From the NCBI GenBank assembly GCA_947034885.2, contig OX344750.2:37992821-38056820 (forward strand): DNA of 64,000 nucleotides. Reading direction: 5' to 3'. Source of the DNA: Thuidium tamariscinum. Its lineage: Eukaryota; Streptophyta; Bryopsida; Hypnales; Thuidiaceae. Each line of letters begins with the position of its first letter. The stretch's first letter is position 1. The position numbers and the translations under genes were made by a program. This document shows positions 1 through 61,839 of this stretch, in pieces. The notes beneath the pieces are model-generated. The model worked only from the letters and a program-made list of their open reading frames with translations, was not told the DNA's origin and ran no database searches.

Positions 1-518
1 CTCGCTCGCGACAGTCGTGTTGGTTTCGATGTTTTTTGATGCAGTAGTTGTCGGTGCAATATCTCATCTGGCTTATGAGAAGCGCGTTGGAGACTGCAGT
101 AACTTAACCTACTGCAAGCTTGGATGGCTTTGTTCCAGAAATTACAACCTTGCAGCCAGAAGTTGCAGGAAATTATGTATGTTCAGGAACTGGGTTGTAC
201 AGATTTGTGGAAGAGAGGAAGATCTGGTCAGAAGGAGAAGTCACCAGCCTTCAGAATTTGTGGTTTTCCAAGTACCCCTCCTGCCCCGCCTCCTGCGAAC
301 TTCGTCTGCTCAGAGTTTCTGTTACATTATGATTGTCTGAGCGACTTCCTGGAGACGTCCTTGGCAAATCTGAGAGTGGTAGAAGATCAACATTCCTGGT
401 CTTGAATTGGGAGAACATGCACTCGTCATAATTATGGCACGGTGGAGTCGGTTCTGCAGTCCCAGTGGGCTGTTTGTATCTCACGATATGATTCTTCGTG
501 GCAATTAGCTTCGTCTTT

Positions 519-567
519 TTTTCCTTTGAAACAAATGAAAACGAAATTTCATTGCGAAGGGAATAAA
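519..567 (-). mobile_element. LINE 3'-end micro-insertion, 49 bp
   Basis: The insert is flanked by the 10-bp direct repeat CTTCGTCTTT at 509-518 and 568-577. Read on the minus strand it contains GAAATTTCG, then TTTTCATTTGTTTC, then an A-rich tail. This is the shared end motif of the other short insertions in the window. Such duplications are the hallmark of target-primed reverse transcription, so the source is probably an L1-type LINE whose copy was 5'-truncated almost completely. Confidence 0.7.
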
Positions 568-1767
568 CTTCGTCTTTCACCTTCTACTGTACTGTACAGT
601 ACTGTACAGTGAATATATCAGATGATACATTGATGTCTTTTCCACCAGTGAAAGTATCTGGAATAGCATCTACGGTAGTGCTTCAGTTCGTAATTGCGGT
701 AATTTATTAGTTTGCACAAGCTTTTGAGGGCTCTCACTGACCGAAACTTTGTAAGCAACTGATTACCCGACATTGCAAATTTGCAACAAAAAAACAAAAC
801 AAAAGTCAGATTTTACATTAGGGGTTGTCACTACATCTCCGAAGCCCTTTGCATTCCTTCAGAATGAGCACGGGTGTGCTGTGGTGGACCGTGAGCAGAA
901 GGCGGAGCTGAAACTCCCAGAGAATGCTGTTTCTTCTCCTCTGCGGGTGAAGAAACGGCTTTTTTTTTAAAATTCTTGCGGAGTTTCTGAAAGTGCTTGG
1001 CCCAGCGCAAGTAGCGGAGCTCCCACCCAACTTTGCAGGTCAGAAATTCCTTGAAAATAGCTCCAAACGACATAAAGGGGTGTCACACCTCCTTCACGCG
1101 GAACGCCTCACAATTGGCTCCACTTTTGTCTCGCTGATTTCTCCGACTTCAAGGAAGTCTGGTTCTTGCAGGAGCTGTGACTACCCCTGACGTCTAAAGA
1201 ACTCGTCTTAATATACATGGAGTCATGTCTGGAGTTGTCCTTTGGTTGAAACCTTGGTCTCGGACAAAGGTTTTGTACGAGGTTGTCAAATTGAGAAATG
1301 AAGAAAAACAGGAGAAGAAATTGGACCTTACCGTACCCTACCAGTAGGTGAGGTCCAACTTTGACCTCTAGCCAATTCTATTTTGCGATGCTTTGGGACA
1401 AAGATACAGACAATCAGTACCTACCATCTAGGAGTCTTTTGCTTGTCTGAATGGAATCCTAGGAATCCAGTTCTTAATGCTAGTTCTCCAGCCACTCTCT
1501 TTGCTCTTTGTCTTTGTGAACTTTGGCCATGGATGGACTCTTGATTCACGCCAGTTTTTGAAAAAGAAACAAAAAGAAAACTTATGATTGGGGACAGTAC
1601 TTCAGAAGCAGGCGATCAAATTCTTTCTTTGTTGCTGTGAAAGAAGAGAAAAGTGTCGAGATAGTGACGGTAGGCAATGCTTTGAAATAACCTCCTAGTT
1701 TCATGTTTTAGAGCTGTCCATTTCTTACCAACTTGTCAAAAGTTGGCTTTAACTTGCGTCACTCGTA

Positions 1768-1796
1768 GCAGGCAGGCAGGCAGGCAGGCAGGCAGG
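1768..1796. repeat. GGCA tetranucleotide microsatellite
   Basis: About seven tandem copies of a CAGG/GGCA unit are read directly from the sequence. No function is implied. Confidence 0.85.
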
Positions 1797-1939
1797 GGTG
1801 AAGGACCACAAGGTGAAACCTGCGAAAACAAGTTACTGGATGATATCGATGCAATTGCGGTACTTTCTGGAACAGTTGCAGGTCACCCCAGTCAGTGCAG
1901 TGTAGCACATGTTCTTGTTCCGTTTTTGATTTTATTTGT

Positions 1940-1966
1940 TTTAATAAACAAAGGAAACGGAATCAG
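1940..1966 (-). mobile_element. LINE 3'-end micro-insertion, 27 bp
   Basis: The direct repeat TTTATTTGT (1931-1939 and 1967-1975) flanks a 27-bp insert. Its minus-strand sequence contains ATTCCGTTTCC and TTTGTTTATTAAA, a variant of the common LINE end. The duplicated target is low in complexity, so chance is harder to exclude than for the other copies. Confidence 0.45.
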
Positions 1967-2404
1967 TTTATTTGTAATGGGCAGTGTAGTGCGCACATGT
2001 TTGGCAGGATGGGATCTGTTCCACTCACTCAGTTTGTACCTTTGTTTTTTGGTGCACCGCTAGCTAGCACGGGCTAAAACTTAGTACTGTGGTACTACGT
2101 TGCAGAATATGAAAAGAATTCGAGCATATGCAATTATTCCTCAACACAAAGCCTGACAGCAAGTAAACAGTCCGTCTTTTCCTGTCTTTGTTGTTCCTTC
2201 TCTTTTTTCTTTATGCTCATGCACAAGGGCTAAAGATGGCTACAGGAGTTCACCAGTCAGATCGGGCATGGGGATTTGTTTGGGCTGTCGTTTGCGAGCT
2301 GATTAATTTGAAGTAAGCTTAGCGGTTCTAGAGAGTTTAGTTCATTCAAGCAAGCATGACTACTTGTTAGCAGTTTTTTTAGCTCTGACTAATTCATTAA
2401 AGAA

Positions 2405-2449
2405 TGAAATTCCGTTTCATTTGTGTCAAAAAAATGAAAAGATAAATGA
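2405..2449 (+). mobile_element. LINE 3'-end micro-insertion, 45 bp
   Basis: Direct repeats ATTAAAGAA at 2396-2404 and 2450-2458 bracket an insert that starts TGAAATTCCGTTTC, continues ATTTGTGTC and ends in an A-rich tail. It is the same terminus as the other copies, here in plus orientation. Confidence 0.65.
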
Positions 2450-2774
2450 ATTAAAGAAGGATTTGGGAGGCCAGATGTGGGTACTGGTACAGTACTGTAA
2501 CTTCCTGCAAAAGGACTTCACATTGTCAACAGTTGCAACGCTTGCTTTAGCTTTACAGTGCTCTAACTTCGAAATGTGTTGCAATGGAAGTCAGACATTC
2601 AATCTTCTAGAGAGTCGGAACTGGAGACCGACAGTCGCTTCTGACTATGAACAGGAATTGGTTGGGGCTTCTCACTGCAAGCTTTTAGGTGTGGGAATTG
2701 ACATGCACTTGAACAAGCTACAAAAATTTCAAAGGTAAGCTTATTGGGTGGCCAACCTTCTGTACGCAGGACGT

Positions 2775-2975
2775 TTAAATCCGTCTCACAAAGTGGGACC
2801 AGCGGGGTAAAATTTGTGTTACCCCAGGGAAAAGTAAAAAAAAGTGCCCTGTTTTGTGCCATGTTTTGGGTATGATCTTGACCTCTTTGCAAAAAATTTT
2901 AAAAATTAAAAAAATTTGGTGTCTCCTCCTATGGTAAATCCAGCTTGCTAGTCCCACTTTGTGAGATGGGTTTAA
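2775..2975. mobile_element. MITE with TTAA target sites (family G)
   Basis: Inverted ends of 21 bp, differing at two positions (ATCCGTCTCAC... against ACCCATCTCAC...), enclose about 193 bp of non-coding DNA. TTAA lies directly outside both ends (2775-2778 and 2972-2975). The termini do not start with CCC, unlike families A-F. The interior resembles DNA around 36410-36600, probably a second, more decayed copy. There is no transposase, so it is non-autonomous. Confidence 0.75.
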
Positions 2976-3168
2976 TCATACATTTTGATACCATGAGACA
3001 TCATCTACTTTAAATAGCAAAAATACTCATTGGAAGTCAAAGTACTATAGAAGATCTTCCCTTTCCACCCCTAATACCAAGGATGAAAAGTTGCAATTCT
3101 GTCTTGTAAGGAAAGATTCTTTGTCATTCAAAGGACACCAAACATCTGAAGCGGCATTCAAGGGTTAA
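2972..3168. mobile_element. TTAA element, family F, copy 2 (decayed left end)
   Basis: From about 2980 to 3168 the sequence matches the complete family F element at 30933-31147. Shared blocks include TTTTGATACC and AGAAGATCTTCCCTTTCCAC. The right end is AGGGTTAA. The left end is unclear because the family G MITE abuts it. Confidence 0.55.
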
Positions 3169-3305
3169 TGGCCTTCCAAACAGACTATTCATCTATGAAA
3201 AATGTTCTTCAATATGTTTCTTATTGTAAGAATCTCAAAATGTAACAAAAGGCAACAAAGTTATATACTATTTAATTATTCTGATTTTCTCTTAGCTGCA
3301 TTTCT

Positions 3306-4827
3306 TTAACCCCTAAATGCCCTAAGGCACCAAATTTTGGTGTCCACAATATTTGAAGTAAGTTAAAACCTAACTTGTTGTTTTTAGTAGTCCATATTTC
3401 AACTTTCTAAATCCAATTTTGAAAATGATTGATTATGATTTTCTACTCAAAATTCTTGACTTTCCATAGTATTGAGGGCTCTTGGAAATGAGCATCAAAT
3501 ACACTAAATCTTGGAGAAAAAATCACATTAGAAATTCATTTAAAAAAATTGTAGATTAGATTTTGAGAAATCATAAATTAATTGGGGTTATACATGTTAG
3601 GCTCTTTAACCTCATTTTTTTTAGTGACCAATTTATTAGATTTGACAAGTGAAAAGAAGATTGAAAAACATCAAATCACTTTTGTAATTTTAACACCCAC
3701 ATGATGAAACATTATAAGCTTCAATCCATTAGTCATATTGTTGTGTTTTCTTTTCATGTGTGATCTCTAACATGTCTAGTTTGAATTTGAGTGGGTGCAA
3801 TTTAAAAAAAAATTGATACAACTTATCAAAATGTTGTCTTTTTGTTTAACCCCTAAAGGACCATTGTCCCCTCGGGGGACAATTTGGAATTCGGGCAGGT
3901 TCCGTAGACCTCAATTTTTAATAAATCTTTTTGAAACTTTCTCATAAGATAGGAAAACAGATTAGCTTCATGGGAATGTAATTTTTATTTCAATTGGTGA
4001 CCAGGAGAAAAAGTTATACCACAAAAAGCCCAAATTTTCATTCGGCAGGCAAAATTTTTTTTTTGCAAAAAGTCAAAATTTAATTTTTTAATTTTTTTTT
4101 CTAAAATAATATATTTTTGCCTACATGTGAAGCTTTGATTCACTCTATTTGGACTTATAATGAGAAAGTTATGGACAATCTTGTTTTTCAGGCAATCTAA
4201 ACAATTTCTTGAAAAAATAACTTATAGGATTCATTTTTGAATGCAATTTTCACAATTTTTCAAAAAAAATTGTTGGACAAGGTTATGTTTACTTTCTAGA
4301 ACAATCTCACCATTGGGATTATTGTAATTCAATTCCATCTTAGAGTTATTAACCATTTAGTTTTTCTTTCAATCTTGGACCTACATCTACTTAACAATTT
4401 TTTAAAGAATCAAAATCAAGTGTTTTTTGTGTGAAATTTTTTTCCTAGACTCTCAACTCAATTTATTAACACAAAAAATTAAAAATTAAAAGTCTATAGT
4501 GCAATTTTTTAATACAAATTCCAGTCAAAGTCATCTGAAATTGCAAACCACAGTTCAAAAAAACTTGTATTTCCAACTTTGAATGCTCATATCTTCCAAT
4601 CCGTACGGTCAAACCTCATGAAATTTTTACCACTTGATCTCAATAAAGTTAAGTACAAGATCCTACGGTTAGATTCTTAAAAATATATTTTTTTTGTTTT
4701 CTTGTATGAATGCAACAGAAATGGCAGTTTTGAGAGGTTTTTGACAGAAAAAAAGGCCTTGGTCCTTTAGGGGTTAATGTAGAGAACATTCCAAGAAGTT
4801 AAAAAAGGCCTTGAGCATTTAGGAGCT
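3306..4827. mobile_element. TTAA element, family B, split by a nested insertion
   Basis: The left part (3306-3845) begins TTAACCCCTAAATGCCC, followed by the palindrome CACCAAATTTTGGTG. The right part (about 4778-4827) ends GGCCTTGAGCATTTAGG. Both parts align with the uninterrupted copy at 18095-18726. Between them lies a complete family A element. The right terminus has lost its TTAA. No coding capacity is seen. Confidence 0.75.
3846..4777. mobile_element. TTAA element, family A, nested in family B
   Basis: Perfect inverted termini CCCCTAAAGGACC / GGTCCTTTAGGGG are flanked on both sides by TTAA (3846-3849 and 4774-4777). The element is 932 bp including both TTAAs, AT-rich and non-coding. Just inside the left end is a hairpin, ATTGTCCCC-TCG-GGGGACAAT. 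The TTAA target and CCC-type ends fit the piggyBac superfamily. Kolobok also uses TTAA and cannot be excluded. Ends this well preserved suggest it is younger than its host copy. Confidence 0.85.
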
Positions 4828-5391
4828 ACCCCCTAAAATAACAATAAGCTCCTATGGAACTTTTTAAGGCTAAAGTAGGTTTATACAAAGTCATTTTTTA
4901 ACAAATGAAGGTGAAACGTTATTAAAAAAGAAGAAGAAGAAGATGTGCACTTGTATTATCTTTATAAAAACATATTTTTTTCCTAATTGGATGCCCCAAT
5001 CAAAAGTTATGGGGCTCAAAATTGAAAGGCAACTTGAACAATCAATGCTAGTAGTAAGGGCAAGTAGGGAGGCAACTTGTGACTATTTTTCCATTAACTT
5101 TGAACACATATGTCTTACAATCTATAAAGCAAAATAGGCTAAAATACTTTCCTTGCATTCTCATGGTATTATAGGTCAATAATATCTTAAATTTAAAAAA
5201 TCATAATTTTTTTGAAATTTCACTATTGCAATAAATTGAATAGATTTAGAATAATTTTAGAACCATTGGCTCCAATTCTAGTGCAAATTTATGAAAAAAA
5301 TTCCACTTAATTAAGAGAAGTAAATATTTGTATTGACCATTGAGATTTTGAATCTTTCAAAAATGAATTCTCTCCAAAAAATTGAAATATT
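4828..5391. other. AT-rich spacer without recognised features
   Basis: Low-complexity AT-rich DNA with a short AAG run near 4930. A string at 4895-4920 resembles the LINE end motif, but I see no target-site duplication. No gene is seen. Confidence 0.5.
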
Positions 5392-8229: not shown

Positions 8230-9147
8230 ATACCTTTTCAAGCTTTGTTATGAATGCTAACAAATTAGGACTTCCTTTTTTTCCATGAAAGATTGTTTTT
8301 AAATGCATAATCTTTTCTTCCTTCTTCTAGTAATGCATGCATTAATGCATGACTTAGAGTCCATTCGAGGTTTGGATTGCAGACTTTGCAAGAATTCCTG
8401 CGAAGTCACTGTAGAGGCCTCTTTGATTTAGAGGTTCCGTTGGCGGGCCAATATGCAGGGTATCAATTGAGGATACCGGCTCTTCCAAACACCATGCTGC
8501 ACTATTGAGTGTCCAGAACCGGCAACTACAGGACAGTGGTCTTCCTCCCCTGTTTCCTAGTACAGTACTGTACTGTCACTAATAAGTAAATGTAGAGTAA
8601 ATTGGTCAGAAAAGTGGGGAGAAGCTGGACACTGTACAGTACTGTGCAGTGCCCTGCAAACTTGGATCATTGAGAGCAATTGCAGAGGTCAACTCTCCAC
8701 ATGGTTATTGACTTGTTGTCGACGACTCTACAGACTCTAGCCGCCGGAGTATTGTAGTGGGACAATTTTAATTTTAATTTAATTTAATTTATTTTGAAAC
8801 AAATGAAACGGACAATTTTGGTGAATTCCACTGAATCTGTCCAGACACATTTGTGATTCTATTGGTAAATGGATTCCTTCATATCCTTGGTTATGATTTA
8901 CACCTTCGGATCATGATAAGAGCCTGGGGTTGATGTTAAATAAATTTGTATTCAACGCTTTGGAAATTTGCAATTGATTATTTGAGGCAAAATAAGTACA
9001 GTCGATTCATATGGTGGACAAAAAAACAAATACTATAAGAATTTGGAATGTTTTTCAATTGCCAATACGACTTAACAAAAGTCAAGCAAATTTCATTGTT
9101 CATTGTTCATTGTGAGAATCATGCGCAGACATTTATTCGAATGCCTT
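8230..9147. other. Mixed-composition spacer
   Basis: This stretch is less AT-rich than its surroundings between 8340 and 8760, but no reading frame gives a recognisable protein. Two TACAGTACTGTA-type palindromes lie near 8560 and 8635. A short LINE-end insertion lies at 8770-8809. Confidence 0.35.
8770..8809 (-). mobile_element. LINE 3'-end micro-insertion, 40 bp
   Basis: The direct repeat GGACAATTTT (8760-8769 and 8810-8819) brackets an insert whose minus strand is GTTTCATTTGTTTCAAAA followed by a repetitive TAAAT-type tail. Only about 18 nt of the source element are present, an extreme 5' truncation. Confidence 0.7.
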
Positions 9148-9513
9148 TACGGTAGAAGCATCCAAAACCATCAAAATAAGGAATTCAACATAGTTGGAGG
9201 TAGCTTTTTCTAAAAATGATATTTTTCTAGGATTAGCAAGTGAAAATCATGAATATGAAAAAGAAAATTAGATTTTTCAGATACATTATGTAATTTCTAT
9301 AAATTTTCAAAGTGTTGGCTCCCTAGACTGCTGGAACTATCCTGTAGGTGTGCCTTGAACTGAACTCTGTTGAAATCAGCAGTGAGACAATCAAATATTT
9401 ATATGTGTCCTTGAAATGCGTCAGCCAATTAGAATCAAATATGTGGTGAACACATTAAGGGAACTCTATTGACGCATTTGGGTGAGTCTACAGTCCAATG
9501 CAAGGGACATGTT
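9148..9513. repeat. Dispersed repeat, copy 1 of 2
   Basis: About 365 bp aligns with 52508-52870 at roughly 80% identity by eye. It includes shared runs such as CAAAATAAGGAATTCA and GAACACATTAAGGGAACTCT. No inverted ends or coding sequence are seen, so the class is unknown. Confidence 0.65.
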
Positions 9514-9693
9514 CGAGAATGAGTGTTTCTCCCTTACATGTGTTTCGTATTCAGAAATAGAATCATGGGGTGGGTGATGTGTAAACACTAAGCTTACTTG
9601 AATTTGTAAATCAACATAACACTTTGGCTTGTCATGCTCATGGTAGTACCAACTTGCTTGAAGTATATTCAATGTACTCCCTCTATCCAAGTA

Positions 9694-12376: not shown

Positions 12377-15300
12377 TCACCCCATCCGCTCGAGCACCTC
12401 CATGGCTTTGTCAACCTCACCATTTGCTTCGTACATGTTGATTAATGTTGTGTAGATCACACTGTCCGGTTTGCATCCAGCCACTTCCATTCTCTCAATG
12501 TAATCGACCGCCCGTTGACACTCTCCACAGGTCCAGCACGCCCAGAAAATTGCAGTAAAAGCATATTTGTCAGGCTTAACTCCATAAAGCGGTTCCATAG
12601 TTTCGAAAAAGAGTAATACTTTCTCTAATTCTCTCCCTTTGGCATAAGCACGAAGAAGTGCACAGCAAGCCTGGGCGTTTGGCCTGATACACAGAGATAC
12701 AGTTTAGAGGAAATTGAACAGCTATTTGCATTCAATTATCAACATTGTCCCGACGGTCAACTAGTTCCTAAGCCATAGCAATTTTCCCGTACTTACTATG
12801 GATAGTTAAATGCGTGATCTCCAGAGCAATTTTGAAAGTATCTAAAAACGATGTCAAATTTGAGATAGACGTACAGCTAATTTTAAAAAATGTCGCACCT
12901 TGTTTAGAAGATCGATCATATTTTAAACTGTCTACTCATCTTTGAACTGTCGTTTCCTGAAAGTATCTAAATATATTGTAATTTTCATAATAGCGGATGG
13001 GGTGATCAATGAGTGGATTAACTTCTTTTCAACATATTTAGATACTTTCAAAAATTGAAAAGGCTGTACGTTACACAGAACACCCCCAATGATTGGATCT
13101 CGTTCAATCATGCTGTCTAAAAAGGTCACCATAATGCTAAAGAAGGATAAAATTATGAGATATAATCACGCTCTCCATATCTAATGTTGGGTTGCCACTT
13201 CAAAAATATTGGCTACACTGAGGTGATGAATATTACATATTCCCGAGATTGTGAGTTGACTTTTCCTGCATCCGAATTCCAGAAAACGAAACAAAAGACG
13301 AAGAATCAAGGGGTGGTGAAGAAGGGCACCTAATGCCTCTTTGACACATCGATTTGAATACAGATTCTGCTTTCTCCCATAATGAAACATCCCCGTAAGC
13401 CTTGATGAGTGAGGAGTACGTGACAATGTTCGGTTGGCACCCACTCTGCTGCATCTGCCGAAATTTTTTCTCCGCAAGCTCCCACTGCCCGGCTTTTGCT
13501 AAAGCACTTATGGTCGTGCTCCATGCCACTACATCAAGCTGCATGCCTAGCTCTTCCAGTTTTTCAACTGTGTAGACGACCTTCCTCCACTGCCGACCCT
13601 TCTCGTAAGCACTAAGCAGAGAGCACCAAGCGACCTGCTTAACACAAGAACCACCTATTACAAACCGTGCGAAACAACAACATTTCCTGCTCTCCCACTT
13701 CGTTATCACTATCCTCACCATGTATCAAAGAAGTTGATGACTTATGAAGAGGACAGGACAAATAAGTCTGATAAAATTCGCTAAAATTGCAAGCGACTTT
13801 TTAAAATGTGCGCAGAACCGTAAATTCTTATCAAGCGGTTTTGCCACATAAGTGACCACGAAGACACTAGGAAAGGGTGGGTTAGACAGCTATCTACCCT
13901 GAGTCGCTTTGGTGACCATGTTGGAAGTACAATGGACGTAATACTGAAGGATGTATGGCTGGAATGGTATAATGAAGCATTCATACGCGCACATGGCTTT
14001 GTGGACTTCCCATAAATTTGGTTGAAGTCTATGAATAAAGAAAGTAACCGCTCACCTCTAAATACATATGAAAAAGGAAAATACAGAACAGGTGGCACAT
14101 TGAAGAAAATAAAAGCAGCAGTTGCCGAAGTAGTGCTACATAGCGAAAAAGAATATGAGAGGGCCCCAAGATAGACCTTATTTGGCGGGCACCCTGAATC
14201 CAGCATTGCATGGAACATCGCTTCCGCCTTCTCCCAATCGCCTCTCTTCTGATAAGCTTTCAGAATCCCACACCAGGACACGACATTGGGGGAACAATTA
14301 CTGGCCCTCATCTTCTCGAAAACTTCCAAAGCTATTTCAGCTTGTCCAGCATTGGCACACGCACTGATCAGACTACTCCACGACATAACATCAGGAGTGA
14401 GGCCCTTATCTTGGATCCAGACAAATGTCCTCAAGGCATTCTCCCATTGAGCTGTTTTCTCATAAGCGCATAAAAGGGCATTATAGCTTTTCAGTCTGAG
14501 TTCACAGCCCTGTTCAAGCATCACTTGGAAAAGACCGTAGGCCTCTCGAGGCTTCCGTGCTCGTGCACATGCCCACTGCATTTCAATGTACTCATTTACT
14601 CCAATTGAGAACCCTCTGGCCTGCGCACATCTAATTTTCCTGAGTACACGGTAATAGATGACTCGCTTCAACGAACAAGAGCTTCCACATTCAACGTGCA
14701 GAATGTGGCATCATAAATCACTTAGAAAGCCAGAACAAGACTTACTTGCATCTTATCAATAAATTCTTGAGCAACCTCCCATTGCCCTGCAGCAGTGGTT
14801 GCTGAAACTAAGGCAGTGAAGGTTATCCTATCAGGCGCTATGCTCAGTTTCTCCATCTCCTCGAAAAGCTTGACAGCAGTGTCGGCTGCGGCACACTGAA
14901 AAAAACTCTTATTCTGAGTTGTGATTGACACACATGAATTTATCCCCAAGCTGGTCCTTTAGGGGTTCTTTATAGAGCACCGTGGTACATCTGATATCAT
15001 CCTAGCGTCCACTCCATGTGCAAGGTCAGTACCTTCGACAAAAATCTCCACACTGAAGCAGTCCAAATACATTGCGGGAAAGCTGGGCTACTCCAATTTA
15101 GAAATTCACAGACCACTGATTACTCTCCTTGTCAAATGCAACCATTTACAATGGCGTTTGCATTAAAATCAAGTTCATACCCTGCCACATACGACCAGAA
15201 TTGCATTGAAGGTAAAAATAGGTCGCTCAATCCCTTTCTTTTCCATCCACCGGAACAGCTTTAAAGCTTGTGCCAATTCACGGCCACATCTGCATATGTA

Positions 15301-28200: not shown

Positions 28201-30627
28201 TCCATGTTTGGCAGGTCGTGAAATACGGAATGCAATTTCATAAGCTTACTATATGATGAAAAGGAATTTGTCAATAGGAGGGATAAAATTATGAGTAGTA
28301 TGAAATAACTGGTACTCTTATTATACAGTGTAAAAAAGGAGATGGGTTGACCAAGTCAGTGAGTGCCACACCTGAATTGCAGGAGTGGTATTGCTTGGCC
28401 AAACTTCTGGCGGAGAGAACTGCTTGGGACTACGCAAACTCACATAACGTAAATTTGGTGACCATATGTCCGGGTGTCACACTGGGAAGCATGTTGCAGC
28501 CTCGCATTAACCAAAGTTCAATCCATATTCTCAAATACCTCAATGGTATGTGAAGCTGAACTCCACATCCACGGTCAAATTCGTGAAATTCCATAAGCGA
28601 AAGATTGTGACATTCATATGCACAAAGCTCTAAAGACTGGTATAGATTTGTATTTCAAGATATTTTATTCGAGTCGTCCTGACAGAACTTGTTTATAAGT
28701 CCAACGAAGTACATAAAAATAGAGGAGTTGATATTGGTAGCAAGGATCGAAATGGAAGACAGGATGAGGTCCGCAACCGTTTATTTTCTACCTGTAGTTT
28801 TATGACTGGCTTGTTAACCATACACCGCGTGTTTAGGGTTTAGGTCTTGGTCCACGACTTCATGGATTGAGTGTTTTTAGGGTTTAGGGTTTTAAGGTTT
28901 AAGGTTTTAGGGTCTTATTAACCCCTCAAAAATCTACATTTCAACAAACTGCAGGATTCTGTGCTTTCATGAATGACTTCATTCTTTCCTTCCATCTCCA
29001 GGTTCCACAAAAACATATGCAAATCTCTGCCAGGCCTATGTTGATGTGGAGGACGCTGCTGAAGCCCATGTTTTAGCATTTGTGACACCAGCGGCAAAAG
29101 GGAGATATCTTTGTTGCAAGTGGTCTCGGCACCGTGGCCAAGTAGTGGAGGCTCTTGCTCGCATGTGGCCCCATTACCCAGTCCCAACAAGGTGAACTCA
29201 CTGCTCTCGTTGCTCGGCATTTTGCCTTGCATTCTTAACTTAATGATGTTGTTAATTATCCTCTGAAGCATACTTCATGATCTTTAACTTTCCTCATTAT
29301 AAACAAAATTTAAGACTGGTAGTGTAGATCTACTTTTCAAGGGGTTTGCCTCAAAAGTCCCAAAGCTGTGAAACTTTACCAATTTAACAAAATTGATGTA
29401 ACGAACAGAGCATTCTTAGGAATCCTTGTTGAGCACCCTTTTGAATTGGCATGAAAAGGAATCTCTCAGAGTCTCAGACCTTAATTTGTAAAGTTTAGCA
29501 TAATTTGAGCAAGCCAGAGATATCTACTCAAATCGATGAGCCATTAACTTCACATGTGGGATTATGTCAGAAAAGTAACATACGTGTTGTTGTTTTTGAA
29601 ACAAATGAAACGGAATTCCATTGCCATAACATACGTGTTTCAAACACCTAAATGTTGACCATGAACTCCGAAATATAGTACCTGTATAGGGCTCCAAATG
29701 GGCATTCAGAAAAATGCTAATCTCGTGACAATTTGCCAATTCATGTTTACTGAGACCTTCCAATTTCGTTTGATTTGAACCTCTCATTTAAGCATTGAAG
29801 GGACTTAACATTCCTGAGAGTCCTTGTTGAGCAGTATCTGATCCCGCACACCCTATTTTGTAAAGTTCAGCTTCATCCGAGCAGAATAGCAGATCAAAGC
29901 TAACATTCAAAGCAATGAGCCGTTAGCTTCCCGTGCGGGAGTATGTCAGAGTGGTCACACTCGTGTTTCAAAATACCCAAATTGTGACTTGGAAATCCGC
30001 AGTTCCGCACAGCTCCAAATCTCGGTAGTACACATATGAGTTCCAATTGGGCGATCTCGTTGAAATTTCCCCATTTCATTGATAACACCTGTCGTGAGAG
30101 CTTTAATTTTCCAACTTGATTACCTCTAATTTGACATGATTCTGCTCTCCATAACCCCTTAATTGGCACTATTTCCAAGCCATGCCGTGCCGTGCCATCA
30201 ATTCCTCCTCAACACTCTTATGAACACGAGCTGTTGCAGGTGCAAAGACGAGGGTGAACCCCCGAAAGTCCCTCTCGATTTCTGCAACCACAAGGTGGAA
30301 CAGCTGGGACTGCAATTCACGCCCCTCGACCACACCTTGAGAAACGCTGTGTCCAGTTTGCAAGCCAAAGGAATCCTCCTCCACAATCAATTGCAACCCA
30401 CCATCTCGGATGTGGAGGATCCCTCTCAATCAAGCCAGCGCACTGGCACTGACTCCAATAATAATTCCTCCACGGTGCCAACGACGAGCGCTGTCCTCCA
30501 CTCCCCCAGCAATGTCCCCCCCACTCCCCACCTTGGATCACGACGAAGCTTATTAAGTTACGGTCAGATCGATGAAGCTCACGAGAATGCAAGCATTGGA
30601 CTGATTGGAGGAGGCCCCAAGCTTTAA
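25260..30627 (+). CDS. Cinnamoyl-CoA reductase-like SDR with N- and C-terminal extensions, six exons
   Basis: Exons are 25260-25803, 26794-26960, 27610-27795, 28383-28545, 29002-29191 and 30240-30627, all GT-AG and in phase, giving 545 aa. Residues 147-470 match the extended SDR family of CCR and dihydroflavonol reductases. Features are the dinucleotide motif GAGGFIA (154-160), RGTLR typical of NADP binding, [11 protein letters not shown] with the catalytic Ser (267-268), and YCLAK with catalytic Tyr302 and Lys306. True CCRs carry NWYCYGK where this has EWYCLAK, so the substrate may differ. The family reduces CoA thioesters or ketones with NADPH in the cytosol. Odd are a 145-residue acidic N-terminal extension with a possible coiled coil (about 50-90) and a 75-residue Ser/Thr/Asn-rich tail. 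Exon 4 could also start at 28329, in frame, adding 18 residues. Family alignment favours 28383. Confidence 0.88.
27938..28020. repeat. Intronic repeat shared between CCR-like introns 3 and 4
   Basis: This block, with TCAAAGATTGTTATACTCAT and GCACAAAGAT, aligns at about 70% with 28575-28660 in the next intron and more weakly with 27296-27370 in intron 2. Either one small repeat was inserted several times or intron sequence was duplicated. Confidence 0.45.
28831..28916. repeat. Degenerate telomere-like TTTAGGG repeats in CCR-like intron 4
   Basis: Several GTTTAGGG and TTTTAGGG units with TTTAAGG variants are interspersed over about 85 bp. They are interstitial telomere-like sequence of the plant type. 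Confidence 0.7.
29400..30180. repeat. Diverged tandem duplication in CCR-like intron 5
   Basis: The segment from about 29400 to 29800 is repeated from about 29805 to 30180. Shared landmarks are CCTTGTTGAGCA, TTTTGTAAAGTT, CAATGAGCC and CGTGTTTCAAA. The first unit contains a LINE-end insertion that the second lacks. Confidence 0.7.
29589..29626 (-). mobile_element. LINE 3'-end micro-insertion with an empty site next door, 38 bp
   Basis: The perfect 13-bp duplication TAACATACGTGTT (29576-29588 and 29627-29639) brackets 38 bp. Its minus strand reads TGGAATTCCGTTTC, then ATTTGTTTC, then AAAAACAAC. The second unit of the local duplication has the uninterrupted target (CACACTCGTGTTTCAAA near 29957), so this is an insertion rather than a loss elsewhere. 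Confidence 0.85.
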
Positions 30628-36275: not shown

Positions 36276-36798
36276 CATAGGAGTGAATTTAATTTAATAT
36301 GTAGAAAATCATTGGTTGGCTAAGAAATTGCAACCCTAAAACCTAAGGTTGGTTAATATTGTCATGTAAGTCCCATGAGAGTCACTAATGGAGAAGGCAA
36401 GACACTAAATTTGGGTTCTCTTGGATCAAAGTAAAAAAAAAGTCCCCTATTTTGAGTCGTGTTTAAGGAATGTTCAAGGTCTTCTGTACCTCATTTGGGG
36501 TCTCTAAATGCAAATATGAATTCAAAATTTTCAAATTTTATCATGTGTGACAAATAAAAAAGTTCTTGCATTCTCAAATCCACCCTACTGGGCCCACTTC
36601 AAATAGAAGATTTAGCGTCTTGCATAGTAATGTGCAGTGATCTCAAAACAGATTCAAGGTTTTTAACCAAATGTTCATTTTTAGAAGATTTTTCAAAATT
36701 TATACAAAGGCCATGAAAAAATTAAGTAGAAAATGAGTGAAATTTAGCCCGTTTTGTGATCACTACTAAGGTGTCAATCCTCCAAAGGATAGAAAATT

Positions 36799-36850
36799 GC
36801 ACTGCAATTCCGTTTCAATCGTAAAAAATACTAAATAAATAAAAATAAGT
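36799..36850 (+). mobile_element. LINE 3'-end micro-insertion, 52 bp
   Basis: The perfect 15-bp duplication AAAGGATAGAAAATT (36784-36798 and 36851-36865) surrounds GCAATTCCGTTTCAATCGT followed by an A-rich tail with TAAA units. It is one of the clearest members of the set. Confidence 0.85.
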
Positions 36851-36967
36851 AAAGGATAGAAAATTAATTGAGTCACCTTTGCCAGCTCATACCTCCATTC
36901 AGTCTTCTGACCACGGTTGTCCCGTATGAAGCGAAAGCAATGTCTCAGCACCATCAAGTGCAGACCG

Positions 36968-37155: not shown

Positions 37156-37194
37156 CTCCGAAGAGGACCTTATCTGCTTCTGGCTCCCCACTGA

Positions 37195-37581
37195 GAGCAT
37201 CCCCATGCCTGCTCTTCAAAGGGCTCCAAATTCATTATATAGAGTGTTTGCTCTGTGAAACTGCCCCATGCCAGGCACTTCAAAGCAAATTTTTACCCAA
37301 CAGAAACTTCAAAGTAACAACCACACTGTATTATTGTGTTCCTTCAACGTGGCTCACTAAATCTTGATTTCTTCAATCTGGCACACTTTCATAGAATTTT
37401 CAGCCATTGGGAGCATGGAGGCCCAACACTTGGCCTGACAGGTAGTTTTTTTCCTTGGGGGATGTGGTTAGTGAGTCTATTTGGAGTGTTGGCATGGGGC
37501 ATGAAGCACTTTCACCAACCATGAGCCCATGTCAACACTCATTTAACGCCCCTGTTTGAAGGCTGTGGCATGGGGATGCTC
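37195..37581 (+). mobile_element. PIF/Harbinger-like MITE, left copy of a head-to-head pair
   Basis: Inverted termini GAGCATCCCCATGCC / GGCATGGGGATGCTC are flanked by the 3-bp duplication TGA (37192-37194 and 37582-37584). It is 387 bp without coding capacity. A 3-bp target and a GAGCATC-type end are typical of plant Harbinger MITEs. The right copy is its inverted relative. Confidence 0.8.
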
Positions 37582-37635
37582 TGAGCTATGTGGCAAGAAT
37601 GCAATAGCGTGTTGTACTTCACAGCTGAAGTGTAA

Positions 37636-38042
37636 GAGCATCCCCATGCCACAGCCTTCAAACAGGGGCGTCAAATGAGTTTTGACATGGGTTCATGGTT
37701 GGTGAAAGTGCTTCATGCCCCATGCCAACACTCCAAATAGACTCACTAAACACATCCCCCAAGGAAAAAAACTACCTTTATCAAGCCAGTGCAAGGTGTC
37801 AGGCCAAGTGTTGGGCCTCCAAACTCCCAATGGCTGAAAATTCTCTGAAAGTGTGCCAGATTGAGAAAATCGAGATTTAGTGAGCCACGTTGAAGAAACA
37901 CAACATTAGAGTGTGGTTGTTACTTTGAAGTTTTTGCTGGGTAAATATTTGGTTTGAAGTGCCTGGCATGGGGCAGTTTCACAGGGTAAACACTCCATAT
38001 AATCAATTTGGAGCCCTTTCAAGAGTAGGCATGGGGATGCTT
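37636..38042 (-). mobile_element. PIF/Harbinger-like MITE, right copy of the pair
   Basis: The same termini are flanked by TAA (37633-37635 and 38043-38045), the preferred Harbinger target. It is 407 bp and inverted relative to 37195-37581, with about 50 bp between them. Because each copy has its own target duplication, the pair arose by two insertions, not one inverted duplication. Confidence 0.8.
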
Positions 38043-38127
38043 TAAGTGGAACCTCACTACCAAGGCTTCAAATCTGCAGCAGAGAAAATTGGCAACCCAT
38101 GAGGGAGGAGGTCCATAAAGTGCCTAT

Positions 38128-51554: not shown

Positions 51555-52174
51555 ATTACTCTCTTCCTTGCTTGCCCTAAAACACCATAGAAGATTCATT
51601 TGATTGCCTCAATTTTTTTGGTAAATTTTCCTTAGAAGGAAAATGAATTTAGCATCTATAGTAATCCAAGTCCTTCCATATTTTGGAGACCTTTGCCAAA
51701 GTAATTATGAATTTTGAAGTTGAAATGTAATGGTCACAAAACACATCCATCCATAACATTTAGTAGCATGAGTAAGGGCTGCCTTTCTTCTCCGAAGTCC
51801 CAACTAAACAGAATTCATCCTTACGATCAGAAAGGAAAGAAGGTAGGAATTAGTTTATAGTAACTTACTTGAAATGGTGCATGTCAGCTTGCCTTGGGAG
51901 TGCAATCTGTCAGCACAAGTTATTGTACCATGGCAACAGGCCACTAGATCAACTTGATTTACTTTGTTAAATGCTAAGTCAGTTTTAGGCAACTGAACAA
52001 GCAAGGGACTGCCAACCTCAAACTCTGAAATCAGTAGTTACTGATATGGTACGGAATATTCCACACCATTCCATCCACATGAAGGCAAGTTTGCTTACTG
52101 CTACTGAATGTTATGTCTCCTGGAATGTACATTTTTTGTACATTGCTCATGCAATTAGAAAATAATATGTACAA

Positions 52175-52211
52175 TTTTATTTCATTTGTGTCAAAAATTA
52201 ATTAAATAATT
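52175..52211 (+). mobile_element. LINE 3'-end micro-insertion, 37 bp
   Basis: Flanking repeats AATAATATGTACAA (52161-52174) and AATAATATATACAA (52212-52225) differ at one base. The insert is TTTTATTTCATTTGTGTCAA followed by a tail of AAATT units. Confidence 0.65.
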
Positions 52212-52507
52212 AATAATATATACAACTAAGCGTGCATTTCTGAAGGTGGGTGCCTTTAAAGCCCAAGCACTTTATGGACCTGCAGCTGCCTTTTACTTCC
52301 TCCAGGTGGAATAGACTCCTTGGCCAGTTGTGTGAACATCAATGCTGTTGAAGTCAATGATTTTTGTGCACAGGCTAAGGTAGTGGTACTTGAATGCCAT
52401 GAAATTAATGACTTGGCAGCCCATTAGAATTTACAAGGGTAGCAGCCAATGGGTGATCAGGATTGAAGAATGGTGCAAACTGAATCAATTAACTTACCTC
52501 ATCAACC

Positions 52508-52870
52508 ATACGGTGGAAACACCCAAAACCGTCAAAATAAGGAATTCAGCATAGTTGGAGGCAGCACTTTCTAAAAATGATATTTTCCTAGTATTAGCAA
52601 GTGAAAATTATGAATATCCAAAAAAAAAAAGATTTTTTGGCTACAATATGTAATTTCTACAAATTTTCAAAGTGTTGGCTCCTTAGACATGTGAAACCGT
52701 CCTATAGGTGCCCCCAAAACTGACCCCTGTGAAAATTAGCACTTAGTCAACCAGATTTTCCTATGTGTCCTTTAGTTGTGTCAACAAATTACAATCACTC
52801 ATGTGGCGAACACATTAAGGGAACTCTACTAACACATTTAGGTGAATCTATTGTCCATTGCAAGGAACAG
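52508..52870. repeat. Dispersed repeat, copy 2 of 2
   Basis: This is the counterpart of 9148-9513, colinear throughout, with small gaps. Confidence 0.65.
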
Positions 52871-52952
52871 GCACAGGAATGTGTGTTTTGCCCTTACTAC
52901 CGTAGGTTGGGGGGTGCTTGAATGCTTGATAGTGGAGTGGAAAATGTTGGGC

Positions 52953-54168: not shown

Positions 54169-55264
<1,096 letters not shown>

Positions 55265-55748: not shown

Positions 55749-55905
55749 ATGAGCCTAGATGTAAGTAGCTCTTCTACAACCATTGAAAGTGTCTATAATA
55801 TAAACTTCTATAATATAGGTTTTTATAATATAAATATCCTATAACCATATAATGTTTCTATAATATAGGCACCTATAATATAGGTGTGTAGATTCCTAGG
55901 CTCAT
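55749..55905. mobile_element. MITE family R, copy 1
   Basis: CATGAGCCTAGA at the left and TTCCTAGGCTCATG at the right enclose TATAATATA-rich DNA with CTACAACCATTGAAAGTGTC. It matches 58341-58504. Confidence 0.6.
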
Positions 55906-57807
55906 GATCTTAGAATCATGTAATGGTAACTCTCAAGGAAGTATCTCAAATATATCAAAACTGTAGGAAATTTCTATTGCAATTTCATTCAAATAATTTT
56001 TGGAGTAAATTTTGAAATGGGATGAAATGGTTATAGTACAACTTCTAAGTTTCCAACCTTTTTTGTAGTTAGACATTATAGTTTTTTAGTCCATGTATAA
56101 TTATGTTACAATTTCTTTTTACATGTAAGCAATTACAAGAAATATATGCCAATTTCTTTTCATTTTATAGTATTCATGATTTTTGGAGGGTACTTTAAAA
56201 TTAGAGTTTAAAAAATAAAAAAATAACATTAATATAGCCAATGTAAAGACCTTCAAGAAGATTTTTCTTTGGAAGATAGAGTATAGAACAATCACCTCAA
56301 AAGAAGATCTAAAAATTGAAGAATCTCAAGAAAATAGGTCTTTTGATGTTTAAATTTGTGAAAATAAGAAGATAATCTTAGAAATATAATATAAATGATC
56401 AAATAGTTAAAACTTTATAGAGACGGTCATACACTAATGGAAACACTAAAATAATTTCCATATCCTAGAATGTATGTAGAAAGAAGCTCAATTAGTTGGC
56501 TTTTATCTAACACAAAATTTACTATTTTAAAACTTCTTTCATTTAGTAGTTGTTCATCTATCCTTCCAAATTAGCAAGTGTGGCATTCAATCAAGGGATA
56601 TTATGAATATGAATTTCTTTTAAGAAAATGGAAAAAAGATTAGCTTAGGTATAATCATCATGAACACTTTAACCATGGATTTTGAGTATTTAGACCCACA
56701 ATAGAAAGTTAAAGCTAAAAAACAATTAGTTAGAGATATGTAATAGTTTACAAAATTAAAGATTGTTACAATTGTCTACATGGTCTATAATTTATTTTGT
56801 TTTAGATTCTATATTGATAATTTCAAGATGTTACTAAACTTATTAAGCTTACCAAAAAGATCATTTAAATAGAAAAAAATACTTTACAAAGTTTGAAAAA
56901 GATCTTAGACATTAGAAATCAAATATTTTTTAATACTATCTTATATAATGAAAAAAATAGTCTCAGATCGCCCAGGTAGAAGTTCATAATGAATGTTGAG
57001 GCCCACTTCTTAACTAATGTGTTCACACTATGTACCATGGAACTCAACAATTATTTTAACTTTGAATCAGGGGTTTTGTTTTAGGCAATTTAATGCCTAA
57101 TTTCCTCCAAAAAAATTGGGCAGCTTCAAGTCTATTGAAAAAAATGAGTATAAATGTAACAAAAAATGCCACACAAAAATAATAGCCCTCTTTACCATTG
57201 CCAACATGCTTCTATACCTCATTTCATTTGTCATGCAAAGCCAAAATTGCATACATAAATTACATATTCAAAATTGTATACTCAAAATTGGCCTCCTTCA
57301 ATTGAAGTCCCCTAAGTTAAGGAGCCAGTCAATTGAAAACCTTCTTGAAAGGAAGGCCATACTACCATTTGTCTGAAAATCCAAAAAAATACCTTGCTTT
57401 GAATTCCTTTCTGAATAAAGCACCTACGGCCTTGGCTTTCTAGCTATGGCTTTGCCACACCAATGAAGGTTATAAGTTCAAACCTAGGTAGTAGCTAGGT
57501 GTTTACCACCATAGTTCATCCAATGAAAATGGAGAGTAAAAGACCTTGTCATTGTATATGAACTTGAGAATTTATTAGGAGTCTAAACATTATATTGTAG
57601 TTATTTATAGGGTTGGAATTCACCAACTAGGTCTAGAAGCTTTTGATAGTTGAGCCATTCACAACAGATGCACCGTGAAGGATGAGAAGTATTTTTCAAG
57701 TGAAATTGTCAAAAATTAAGATTTAAGGGGGGGGGGGGAGAGGGGGGAATGACCAAACTTGAATTCTTTTCCCTTGAATCCTAAACAAACAAAAGTGTAG
57801 TAGACCA
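55906..57807. other. AT-rich intergenic DNA
   Basis: No recognised gene. A G-rich homopolymer run lies near 57726-57748. The 86-aa frame at 57116-57376 has no recognisable domain. Confidence 0.4.
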
Positions 57808-58905
57808 TTATTTCCTAAAATTCTTTAATTATATTTTCATCAAAAATGCTCAAAAATTACCATTTCTAATTCAAGTACCAAATCTTAGAAAATCAACAAC
57901 ACTTATTGATACATTTAACTATAGGATCTTGTAGTACATTGGTTTGAAAAGATGTGGAAAAATTTCAAATATTTTTATTGTAGATTACAAAATATTAGTG
58001 TTCAATTGATAGGAATCCTTTTTAAGGCCCTATGAAAAAATGTTTATCTAAACTTCACAAGATCACATTTTTATGAAGTATGTTTATATTGATAATGCTT
58101 CATTGAATTTGCTCTTCAAGGCAAATTGATTAGATGATTGAAAATTTTCAAATCATTTGGAATTGTACAAGAGTAAGAAAAAAATAGCAAGTAGAAAGAA
58201 GTAGAAAATGATTCAAATTACTAAATTGTTAAGAGTTTAGTTATGGAATCAAAAAAGGCCAATCATAATGGTTGTTAAGTTGTACGTAGTAATAAACAAT
58301 TTAGAATGGTGCTAGTATGTGAATATGAAAATGTGAGCATATGAGCCTTGAACATATGTATAAGTAGATATACTACAACCATTGAAAGTATATTTAAAAT
58401 GAACGCCTATAATTTAGATATCTATAATGTAAATGCACTATAATCATAGAAGGTTTCTTTAATAAAGAGACTTATACTATAGGTGTATAGTCTTCTAGGC
58501 TCATGGGCTTTCACTTGTAGGCTTACATAATAGCAATTCTCTTTTAGAGTAGAGTACTCATAACTACTTGCAAACTAAAATTCTTCATGACTTTCATCTC
58601 ATTAATCAAAATGGAATCATTAAAAGCTTTCCGCACATACACAAATCAAAAAAATTAATTTCAAATTTTAATTTCAAATTTTTTTAAGCTATCCATATTT
58701 TTTGGTTGGAGAAAAAAAACTAAGTGTCATACAATTACTTTTTAACCATGAAGTCAAAAGTGATGAATATTGTAAAACATGAAAAAAACCCTCATCTCTA
58801 TGTTATGTAAATTTCAAAGAAGACAAATAAATTTTTTATTTGTAGTGAGTCACCTAAAATTGCTATGTTGCCAAAAAAAACATAGCTTAGTCCATTAGGA
58901 ATTAA
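57808..58905. mobile_element. TTAA element, family C, copy 4 (reverse, decayed)
   Basis: It is colinear with 38128-39078, from TTATTTCCTAAAATTC to GTCCATTAGGAATTAA (TTAA at 58902-58905). It is longer because a family R MITE inserted within it. Confidence 0.65.
58341..58504. mobile_element. MITE family R, copy 2, nested in a family C element
   Basis: ATGAGCCTTGAAC at the left and TTCTAGGCTCAT at the right, with CTACAACCATTGAAAGTAT inside, match 55749-55905. The element lies within the family C copy around it and is absent from the other copies. Confidence 0.6.
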
Positions 58906-61013
58906 GGCAAGGTGTGCAGATGAATTCAAAACATTGGATTGCTTGGATTATAAGATTATAAAATTTTAAGTGATTGAAGAAGATCCTTTCCAACCTTGCC
59001 AAACAAAGACAAGAAAATGTAAACTCTTTTAAAGTGAAAACTTAGTTGTTTTGCAATTGAGTCTCTACACCCCTTGAATATTGCAACTTATTAGATACAC
59101 TCATGAATTTTTTTCCAAAAACAAACAAGGGATCTACCTTATTCTAAATCATCTCATAAAATGAGGATGTTAAGTAATTTGGCGATATTGAATATGAAGG
59201 TAGAATTCAACACTTAGGTGCCAAAATACTTTTTTTTGCTTACACAAAGAATTTTGATACGTAGAACTATTTGTGTTAGTATTTTGGCATTATAGCATTT
59301 TAGTTGTTTTTCTAATTTTTAACAAATTTTGTATTTTATTGTAGATCAAAGTTTGTGATTGTACTCGGCTATTCTAATTACCAAACTGATGTTAATGATT
59401 GTATTAAAATTTTACACTTGAAAATGATATTTTTGTATTTTTTTTCCAAATTTTTGAAACATTCAAGAAATCAAGCAATATAGATGAAAAATTTCTACGA
59501 TATTTTGGATGTTCACTTATAATATTCCAAAAAATTCATAGATTCCCAAAATACTCAATTTATGTTTGAATTTGATCTTCACGTATGGTATATAAGCTAT
59601 TTTTTATGATTTCTTGATCATTGAGATTTAAGAAAATCTAAATGGTAAAACCATAAAATTAAACATTTAGAACATGTGGAAAGTTTCAAAATCTTTGACA
59701 ATTTAGATTACAAGATGTAGTATTTGAATTTAGAAAGAAATGTTCTTTTAAAAAAATCAATATAGTATCAAGTTCGACTCCCCTCAAAGTGTGAATTTAA
59801 AACATTAAATTTTTTTTGATGATTTTGTACCAAACTAATTTTGCTACCTATGAGCCAAATTTCAAAAGTGGATGAGGATTATAGCATAAGATGCCCAAAA
59901 GATGCATGAATTATCCAAATTGTTTTGGACAACATAACTTTTCATTTAGGCATGTAAACACAATTTTTTTGCTTTCTTGCAAAAGCAATTAATGAACACA
60001 TTTTGTATTAGATTTTATAAAAGGCCTATCCAAAATTGACTTCAAGGTAACATGCATGCATTTTCAAAAGTCCATTTGAGGGGCAATTGACCTTTATGAG
60101 TTAAAGGAAATGTTGGTGACTAGCCATGCCAACATGGATTGTCCTTGGCCATGCTTTGAGCTTGGTAATTGCCCTTGAGATATACATTATATACACATTT
60201 TCTTTGCAAAAATCAATCAATATTCAATGATTTTCATAAAATTATAAAAATATTTGCATCTTCACCAAGGTAACAAAAATGTCCCTCATATCTTCCCTCT
60301 TCACTAATTCTCTTTTGAATGTAAGGTAGCAACACCTAAAAGAAGCATAGTCCATTTTCAAATACCTAAAGGTGGCATTAAAGTAACACGCTCTTGAATG
60401 GAGTGGTCATTAAGAATCACTTGTTAGTAGGCCATGAAACTATGTGGTTTAGAAAATGGCTAAGTTTTGGTGAGGTGATGATGTGTGATTTCTAAGGAGC
60501 AATTTTAAGACAATAAGCATTCTATATCCATGGAATAGTAGATTGTGTAGTTTGTCACTCATTAATAAGTCCTTCAATTGGTGATGGAGAAATTAATATG
60601 ACAGTAAGAACCAACAATGTAAAAGTCTCTTTTTCCTTGCGAGGTGACTAAAAAAATGATTACAAAAGCAAGTATAGTGAATTAGATGATGTGCTCTATT
60701 TTTGACACTCTCTATAAACATTCCATAAATTCTATAAACATATTGAGCCTCATATCAATTAATTTCTGAATTCATTCATTGCATTCTAAGGCACAGTCCT
60801 ATTCATGATTGATGCAACCTATATGTACACAACAATAGTGCCTTTTGGACCTACCCCTTCAGAAAATCATAGTGTATCAATCATAATTCAGAAAATTACC
60901 AATAAGAAGACTTTCAGTTGTTTTTCATTTCTCTATGCACCCTCGAAAAGACAAAAGTGTTGGGCGCAATGGTCCATCATTAGATACAAATGAAATTTTC
61001 CTTTAATTATTTC
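58906..61013. other. AT-rich intergenic DNA
   Basis: No gene, RNA or paired ends recognised. Confidence 0.4.
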
Positions 61014-61281
61014 CATTAGAGGGGATTTGAGGCCTCCAAAGGGCCGTTTCAAGGCTGTTCCCCAAACTGTTCTTGTAACTGCTAGCCGCTGTCAAGCCAA
61101 CTTATACCAAAAATAATTTTTTTGGGGGTCCTTAAATATGAAAAAAGCCCAAAATAAATTCAAATTTTTTAATGACATGGCACTCTCTCGACCACGTCGG
61201 ATTTCTGTTCACGTAGCAGAAATTGCGTTCCCGTAGTCCGGGAACCCGCAGTCTTCCAATGGCCTCAATAATCCTCTAATG
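61014..61281. mobile_element. MITE family H, copy 5
   Basis: CATTAGAGGGGATTTGAGGC at the left pairs with the right end around CCTCAATAATCCTCTAATG. The marker TAGTCCGGGAACCCGCAGTC is well preserved. It is 268 bp and non-coding. Confidence 0.75.
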
Positions 61282-61606
61282 TCTTGAGTATGCATGAATT
61301 TTTTTGGTGTTATTTGTTGCTTTTTGGGTGTTCCTACCCTACCTTCACATGAGAGTTGAAATTTGTGGGAGTAGTATTTCACGGAAATGTACATGGAAGA
61401 ATCTTCAAAATAATTGAATAGTGTGTGGAACAATTTTAGGACAGAAACTCAATATTCTCCGGATCCTCACACAGAATAAATCAGGTACCGGATATATTAG
61501 AAATTTGAATATGCTTTCCTTGCAACTGAAGTTGCTGAAAAATTGTCAATACACGAGCATTCTATCTGCTGAGGATGAGTCTACACTCTACACTCCACAT
61601 ACTTTT

Positions 61607-61643
61607 TATTTTTTTAAATTGATTTTTTTAACAAATGGGAGAC
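61607..61643 (-). mobile_element. LINE 3'-end micro-insertion with a 16-bp target duplication, 37 bp
   Basis: The perfect 16-bp repeat CACTCCACATACTTTT (61591-61606 and 61644-61659) brackets an insert whose minus strand is GTCTCCCATTTGTTAAAAAA with an A/T tail. The core differs from the consensus, but the long duplication is decisive for a retro-insertion. Confidence 0.8.
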
Positions 61644-61839
61644 CACTCCACATACTTTTGACCATAGCAAGGTGAAAGTACCTATTTCCATTTATTAAAG
61701 CATCTGAACCCTTTGGAAGAGATTCCTTCATAGCACACACACATTTTCCGTGTACACACATTTTTCATGCTTTGATAAAAAGCTTTAATAGACACACCTA
61801 TTTAAGTGAAAATTTGGAAAAAAATCGCAATTTCTTTTC

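What the first reader, a model, noticed from the sequence alone, without database searches (positions are those of the whole stretch)
509..61659. Family of ultra-short LINE-end insertions with intact target-site duplications
At 519, 1940, 2405, 8770, 29589, 30791, 36799, 52175, 52953 and 61607 there are inserts of 23-52 bp, each between direct repeats of about 8-16 bp. In every case the insert is just the last 15-30 nt of one 3' terminus (consensus close to TTCCGTTTCATTTGTKTC) plus an A/T-rich tail. The 1940, 30791 and 52953 members are weaker. Truncated L1 copies are well known, but a set almost all under 55 bp, about one per 6 kb, is striking. Either reverse transcription here aborts almost at once, or the enzyme is using a tiny template. 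These would be invisible to normal repeat masking.
Basis: partly seen in the sequence, partly recalled or inferred. Interest (0 to 1): 0.88.

Follow-up and report, generated by a model that had tools for sequence, protein, structure and literature searches.

The report
Tiny aborted LINE insertions in clusters
A plant-type jumping gene (an L1-like LINE) in this genome has left many copies that hold only its last 15 to 110 letters, each of the clearest ones still flanked by the short duplicated target sequence that a true insertion leaves, so the copying step seems often to stop almost at once.

Summary
The core TTCCGTTTCATTTGTKTC occurs 236 times exactly and 2,080 times with up to 2 mismatches in this 363-Mb genome (reversed controls 0 and 90). 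At 50 exact sites (48 in list order, 2 in the window) direct repeats lie where tail homology ends far more often than in controls: 20 of 50 score >=12, against 14 of 1,500 AT-rich 18-mers. In 25 delimited sites, inserts with tail are 24-113 bp (median 53), duplications 10-16 bp. The source exists: L1-like LINEs end in this tail. At least 2 of 100 listed exact cores, and few more at best, have LINE coding sequence upstream. The 5' ends lie 0-22 or 43-66 nt upstream of the core; one doubtful site falls between, and this gap is a post hoc pattern. A fixed tiny SINE is unlikely. Early stop of target-primed reverse transcription is the best reading; short RNA templates and selective loss of long copies are not excluded. 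One per 6 kb is a local cluster. Copies under 50 bp are in print for anole CR1, so this is an extreme variant, not a new kind.

The parts
500..577 (-). short tail copy; repeats 500-518 / 559-577, insert 519-558
   Evidence: p 0.015; p 0.016; core with 2 mismatches at 528
1905..2001 (-). weaker member; repeats 1905-1913 / 1993-2001; insert holds tail-like sequence in both orientations (fold-back, by eye)
   Evidence: p 0.047; p 0.015
2396..2461 (+). short tail copy with exact core at 2410; repeats 2396-2407 / 2450-2461
   Evidence: p 0.04; p 0.087
8760..8819 (-). very short copy: only GTTTCATTTGTTTC of the tail plus an A/T-rich tail; exact 10-bp repeats 8760-8769 / 8810-8819
   Evidence: p 0.038; score 12.4; the anchored test missed it (p 0.43) because the repeat runs into the core
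29576..29639 (-). short tail copy with exact core at 29598; exact 13-bp repeats 29576-29588 / 29627-29639
   Evidence: p 0.02; p 0.015
   Evidence: p 0.23; p 0.59
36784..36865 (+). short diverged tail copy; exact 15-bp repeats 36784-36798 / 36851-36865
   Evidence: p 0.012
52161..52225 (+). very short tail copy; 14-bp repeats with 1 mismatch, insert 52175-52211
   Evidence: p 0.015; p 0.044
   Evidence: p 0.41
61591..61659 (-). very short copy of a tail ending CATTTGTTA; exact 16-bp repeats 61591-61606 / 61644-61659
   Evidence: (p 0.007)

Best explanation
These are 5'-truncated insertions of L1-like LINEs that carry a conserved, probably structured 3' tail. The LINE protein nicks an A-rich site, primes on the 3' A-run of its own RNA, copies the tail and in many events stops within about the first 100 nt; the stub is joined, leaving a 10-16 bp target-site duplication. 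Shown: the insert anatomy, the duplications, and LINEs in the same genome with the same 3' end. Inferred: that copying stopped early (rather than the template being short), that the protein recognises the tail hairpins, and that the stops fall just past the hairpins.
For: Core 236 exact copies genome-wide, 0 reversed; 32-nt version 799 with <=3 mismatches, 0 reversed. Anchored duplications, 20/50 at p<=0.02, and local controls. Of the 29 sites at p<=0.06, 25 were kept (dropped: L079 duplicate; L060, L068, L077 doubtful): duplications 10-16 bp, median 13; inserts 24-113 bp, median 53. L1-clade duplications peak at 13-15 bp (passage of PMC4245944). Duplications begin AAA (21, 20 and 15 of 25 at the first three positions; inflated by alignment to the A-rich tail). 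LINE C-termini lie on the same strand 394-431 nt upstream of the tail at 7 places (one search set; checked); six of these ends were read (L094-L098, L088+L099). Related LINEs carry Exo_endo_phos and RVT_1 (L040) or RVT_1 and zf-RVT (L045), and match chains named LINE-1 ORF2 protein best or nearly best among solved structures (L045: 8c8j 5.1e-43 'RNA-directed DNA polymerase', 8sxt 6.6e-43; L040: 8uw3 2.6e-66). 2 of 100 listed exact cores and 4 of 100 listed 32-nt matches have such a C-terminus upstream.
Against: 21 of 50 sites gave no repeat at p<=0.06. Eight of these have tail homology of 40 nt or more and no repeat in the stretch fetched by either test (L003, L055, L065, L066, L075, L083, L085, and L088, which is a LINE end); they may be longer insertions, so the true lengths are somewhat longer than the delimited set. 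The LINE-body link is a lower bound: 150 of 551 candidates were scored and 61 were compared. No expression or biochemical data; early stop and short template cannot be told apart by sequence. Loss of longer copies by selection was not tested.
Confidence: 0.75

Rival explanations
1. The templates are short: the 3' tail of LINE RNA, folded and held by the LINE protein, survives decay of the rest of the RNA, and these 30- and 70-nt fragments are copied completely.
For: 5' ends of 25 delimited inserts fall at 0-22 or 43-66 nt upstream of the core and none at 23-42, i.e. just past hairpin 2 or within/past hairpin 1; exponentials predict about 6 in that band.
Against: The band was chosen after seeing the data, and the chance of a gap this wide is 0.02-0.11 under exponentials. 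If the three doubtful sites are kept, one (L060, 28 nt, repeat p 0.02) falls in the band. 5' ends within each class are spread over about 20 nt, and some stop inside hairpin 2 (8770, 52175).
Confidence: 0.25
2. A miniature SINE of about 30-80 nt, sharing the LINE tail, is the source.
For: Copies outnumber LINE bodies: 236 exact cores against 61 L045-like C-termini among 150 scored.
Against: No fixed 5' end; longer copies continue into T/G/C-rich sequence like the LINE 3'UTRs (by eye).
Confidence: 0.07
3. Ordinary truncation plus selection: long insertions happen as often but are lost because they harm genes or recombine.
For: PMC5389967 reports stronger selection against complete LINEs in anole (passages). 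Copies cluster: 4 further hits at <=2 mismatches in 43 kb of flanks against 0 in 253 kb around reverse-transcriptase genes (1 at <=3 mismatches).
Against: The genome holds many reverse-transcriptase genes (150 RVT_1 matches scored of 696 candidates); exact, hence probably young, cores are short too.
Confidence: 0.2
4. Chance AT-rich matches.
For: Two of ten window sites show no significant repeats.
Against: Reversed controls 0 against 236 and 0 against 799.
Confidence: 0.01

Closest known systems
5'-truncated L1-clade LINE copies (human L1 and others)
   Same: 3'-anchored copies, A-rich tail, duplications near 13-15 bp, L1-like ORF2
   Different: delimited inserts are 24-113 bp; PMC2912911 (passages) counted human and chimpanzee insertions only from 50 bp upward
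Anolis CR1 insertions (PMC5389967; passages, section 15)
   Same: [quoted passage not shown] truncation commoner near the 3' end
   Different: CR1 clade in a vertebrate; no two-zone pattern is reported in the parts read; there about 40% of L1 insertions are complete
Stringent-type L1 LINEs of green plants (PMC3747384, passages)
   Same: green lineage, L1-like, poly(A) after a conserved 3' hairpin with compensatory changes; Chlamydomonas L1-1_CR shares its 3' end with a SINE
   Different: tail here has two predicted hairpins; no SINE partner was seen, though none was searched for genome-wide
Zebrafish ZfL2-1/ZfL2-2 tail recognition (PMC4176376; abstract and outline)
   Same: a 3' stem-loop near the end of a LINE
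   Different: L2 clade; binding was tested there, not here

Membership tests
L1-type LINE | APE-type endonuclease, LINE reverse transcriptase, C-terminal zf-RVT | tested here: met
   L040 ORF: RVT_1 1.2e-33, Exo_endo_phos 3e-11; L045: RVT_1 3.8e-33, zf-RVT 3.3e-07. zf-RVT was found in L045 only; the L045 endonuclease part was not scanned. No tree was built; the ORF2 of the LINEs that end in the exact core (L094-L098) was matched only by its C-terminus, at about 54-61% identity to L045.
L1-type LINE | target-site duplications of about 13-15 bp | tested here: met
   10-16 bp, median 13, n=25
L1-type LINE | same 3' end in LINE bodies and short copies | tested here: met
Stringent-type LINE | conserved 3' stem-loop with compensatory changes | tested here: inconclusive
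   Folds and stems show different stems at one place in several LINEs (AATGAAA/TTTCATT, AGTAAAGG/CCTTTATT, AATGGA/TCCATT, AATGGG/CCCGTT). Against: in 4 of 12 tails (L039, L040, L046, L088) the scan's best stem lay elsewhere (33, 100, 167 and 150 of 500 shuffles as good); L043 is weak (44 of 500); L042's fold did not form hairpin 2.
Stringent-type LINE | tail needed for retrotransposition | not testable with these tools
   needs an assay
SINE | fixed 5' end with a promoter-bearing head | tested here: not met
   5' ends spread 0-66 nt upstream of the core in 25 sites; promoter motifs were not searched for

The most novel reading that the evidence does not exclude
Target-primed reverse transcription in these LINEs is gated by the tail's two hairpins: the enzyme usually leaves the template just after copying one of them, so the genome keeps a footprint of two checkpoints in the first 100 nt of cDNA synthesis.
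Probability: 0.3. Interest if true: 0.65.

Novelty: new variant of a known kind. Interest (0 to 1): 0.5.

Why it matters
LINE truncation is usually measured on copies long enough for repeat finders. Here hundreds of core copies, many with intact duplications in the sample examined, record where copying ended in its first 100 nt, which makes the early, poorly seen step of target-primed reverse transcription open to counting. It also suggests that LINE insertion numbers in such genomes are underestimated: of 100 listed exact cores only 2 were found with LINE coding sequence attached (a lower bound).

Tried and rejected
Rfam scan of the window: no match at gathering thresholds. PF00078 search: most top hits look like Gypsy-type elements (my reading of their match lengths, recalled); LINE candidates were picked by longer matches. 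Related tails as a comparison: TTGCAATGGAAATTGTCCTTTGTTTC has 21 copies at <=3 mismatches, 2 with a LINE C-terminus upstream (against 53, by eye); CAATGGAATTGGTCCATTTGTTTC has 473, 4 of the 100 listed with one (against 53, by eye). So strong truncation is not special to the core family. MAFFT misaligned the stem arms; stems were listed by script. Paper searches: (the last found nothing); 'not in print' is not claimed. The gap in 5' ends was tested on 25 sites and on 28 with the doubtful ones kept (1 in the band, 6.5-7.7 expected, P 0.001-0.004 for a band chosen after the fact).
Full report
The window is G000:C2:37992821-38056820 of a 363-Mb genome in 19 contigs. A RuBisCO small-subunit gene on the 54-Mb contig C1, in two pieces and two inverted copies, and a PPR repeat frame in the window suggest a photosynthetic eukaryote of the green lineage (that a nuclear small subunit marks this lineage is recalled); the species is not known to me.

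Observation. In the genome it occurs 236 times exactly, reversed control 0, and 2,080 times with up to 2 mismatches, reversed control 90; a 32-nt version occurs 799 times with up to 3 mismatches, reversed control 0.

Test on sites not chosen for repeats. I used 50 exact sites: the first 48 listed (L001-L008, L054-L073, L074-L093) and the two in the window. For each, homology to the tail was followed upstream and a repeat was sought near its end. Against the downstream flanks of the other sites, 20 of 50 reach p<=0.02 and 29 of 50 p<=0.06. Against local controls of the same geometry, scores >=12 occur in 20/50 core sites, 14/1,500 AT-rich 18-mers and 15/1,000 AT-rich 18-mers followed by an A-rich stretch. 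An unanchored version gave 22/50 above the 95% point of the null (15/292 in the null). Of 15 further inexact sites in the loaded loci, 6 have p<=0.05. L079 and L082 are copies of one insertion; no other pair has alike flanks.

Anatomy. From the 29 sites I dropped L079 (duplicate) and L060, L068 and L077 (repeat short, of low complexity, or far from the tail). In the remaining 25 the duplications are 10-16 bp (median 13), the inserts 24-113 bp with tail (median 53), and the 5' ends lie 0-22 (17 sites) or 43-66 nt (8 sites) upstream of the core. The dropped sites would add 5' ends at 28 (L060, p 0.02), 7 and 14. Two more sites are delimited only by the unanchored search: L080 (61 nt upstream, score 18.5) and L091 (93 nt, score 16.5); L004 (78 nt, score 11.8) is just below its 95% point. 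Eight sites with homology of 40 nt or more have no supported repeat in the stretch fetched and may be longer; one of them, L088, is the end of a LINE body. Some copies stop inside hairpin 2: at 8770 only 14 nt of the tail are present.

Source. L1-like LINEs are present. L040 has a 1,474-codon open frame with endonuclease and reverse transcriptase; L045 has reverse transcriptase and zf-RVT; both match LINE-1 ORF2 chains best or nearly best among solved structures. LINE C-termini related to L045 lie on the same strand 394-431 nt upstream of the tail at C2:30495486, C3:18281792, C6:10489623, C6:13239883, C6:28283859, C7:5989292 and C7:14144016 (one search set; recounted). Six of these ends were read (L094-L098, L088+L099): their 3'UTRs differ, but the last ~65 nt are alike, CCAGGCCACYTGTGGCTGG with small changes, a variable linker, then GCAATGAAATTCCGTTTCATTTGTKTC with single changes and an A-run. 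L045 itself ends in a changed version that can form the same two hairpins.

RNA structure. Two example tails fold into both hairpins (z -2.4 and -2.0); a third, from L042, forms only the first (z -0.9). Stems near the 3' end differ in sequence but keep pairing in several LINEs, yet in 4 of 12 tails (L039, L040, L046, L088) the scan's best stem lies elsewhere and is weak. So a structured tail is likely but not proved by covariation counts.

How short? Of the 100 exact cores listed, 2 have an L045-like C-terminus upstream; 4 of the 100 listed 32-nt matches; 3 of the 30 places that keep hairpin 1 (using the 61 L045-like rows, which scored 150 of 551 candidates). Two related tails show the same: 2 of 21 and 4 of 100 (by eye). 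These fractions are lower bounds.

Clusters. In 43 kb of sequence around the 48 fetched focal sites there are 4 further hits at <=2 mismatches; in 253 kb around reverse-transcriptase genes there are none (1 at <=3); the window has 6 in 64 kb. The genome mean is about one per 175 kb. In this sample the copies sit in clusters, and the window is one.

Mechanism and rivals. Target-primed reverse transcription with a stop in the first ~100 nt explains the 3' anchoring, A-rich tails, duplications and varied 5' ends. A fixed small SINE does not explain the spread of 5' ends. Short protected RNA templates, and loss of long copies by selection, remain open. The thin band at 23-42 nt is a post hoc pattern: exponentials predict about 6 of 25 sites there and 0 are seen, but the chance of a gap this wide is 0.02-0.11; with the three doubtful sites kept, 1 of 28 falls there against 6.5-7.7 expected.

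Known work. Severely truncated (<50 bp) anole CR1 insertions are mentioned in PMC5389967 (passages and section 15). Stringent 3' ends in plant and algal L1 LINEs are reviewed in PMC3747384 (passages). L1-clade duplications peak at 13-15 bp according to PMC4245944 (passages). PMC2912911 counted insertions of 50 bp or more (passages). PMC4176376 was seen as abstract and outline. Hence an extreme variant of a known process.

Noticed in passing
window 1905-2001: The 1940 member holds tail-like sequence in both orientations, a fold-back that could be a 5' inversion.
   Followed up: partly
L008:935-1910; L005:1415-2040: Several core-like copies within about 1 kb of each other.
   Followed up: partly
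window 37188-38049: Long inverted repeat (arms 253 nt at 91% and 143 nt at 97%), perhaps a fold-back element.
   Followed up: no
window 9148-9537 and 52509-52897: Direct repeats, 78-88% alike, 43 kb apart.
   Followed up: no
G000:C1:37895537-37922307: Two RuBisCO small-subunit genes in inverted orientation about 26 kb apart, each matched in two pieces.
   Followed up: no
window 13781-14671 (-): PPR repeat protein frame.
   Followed up: no
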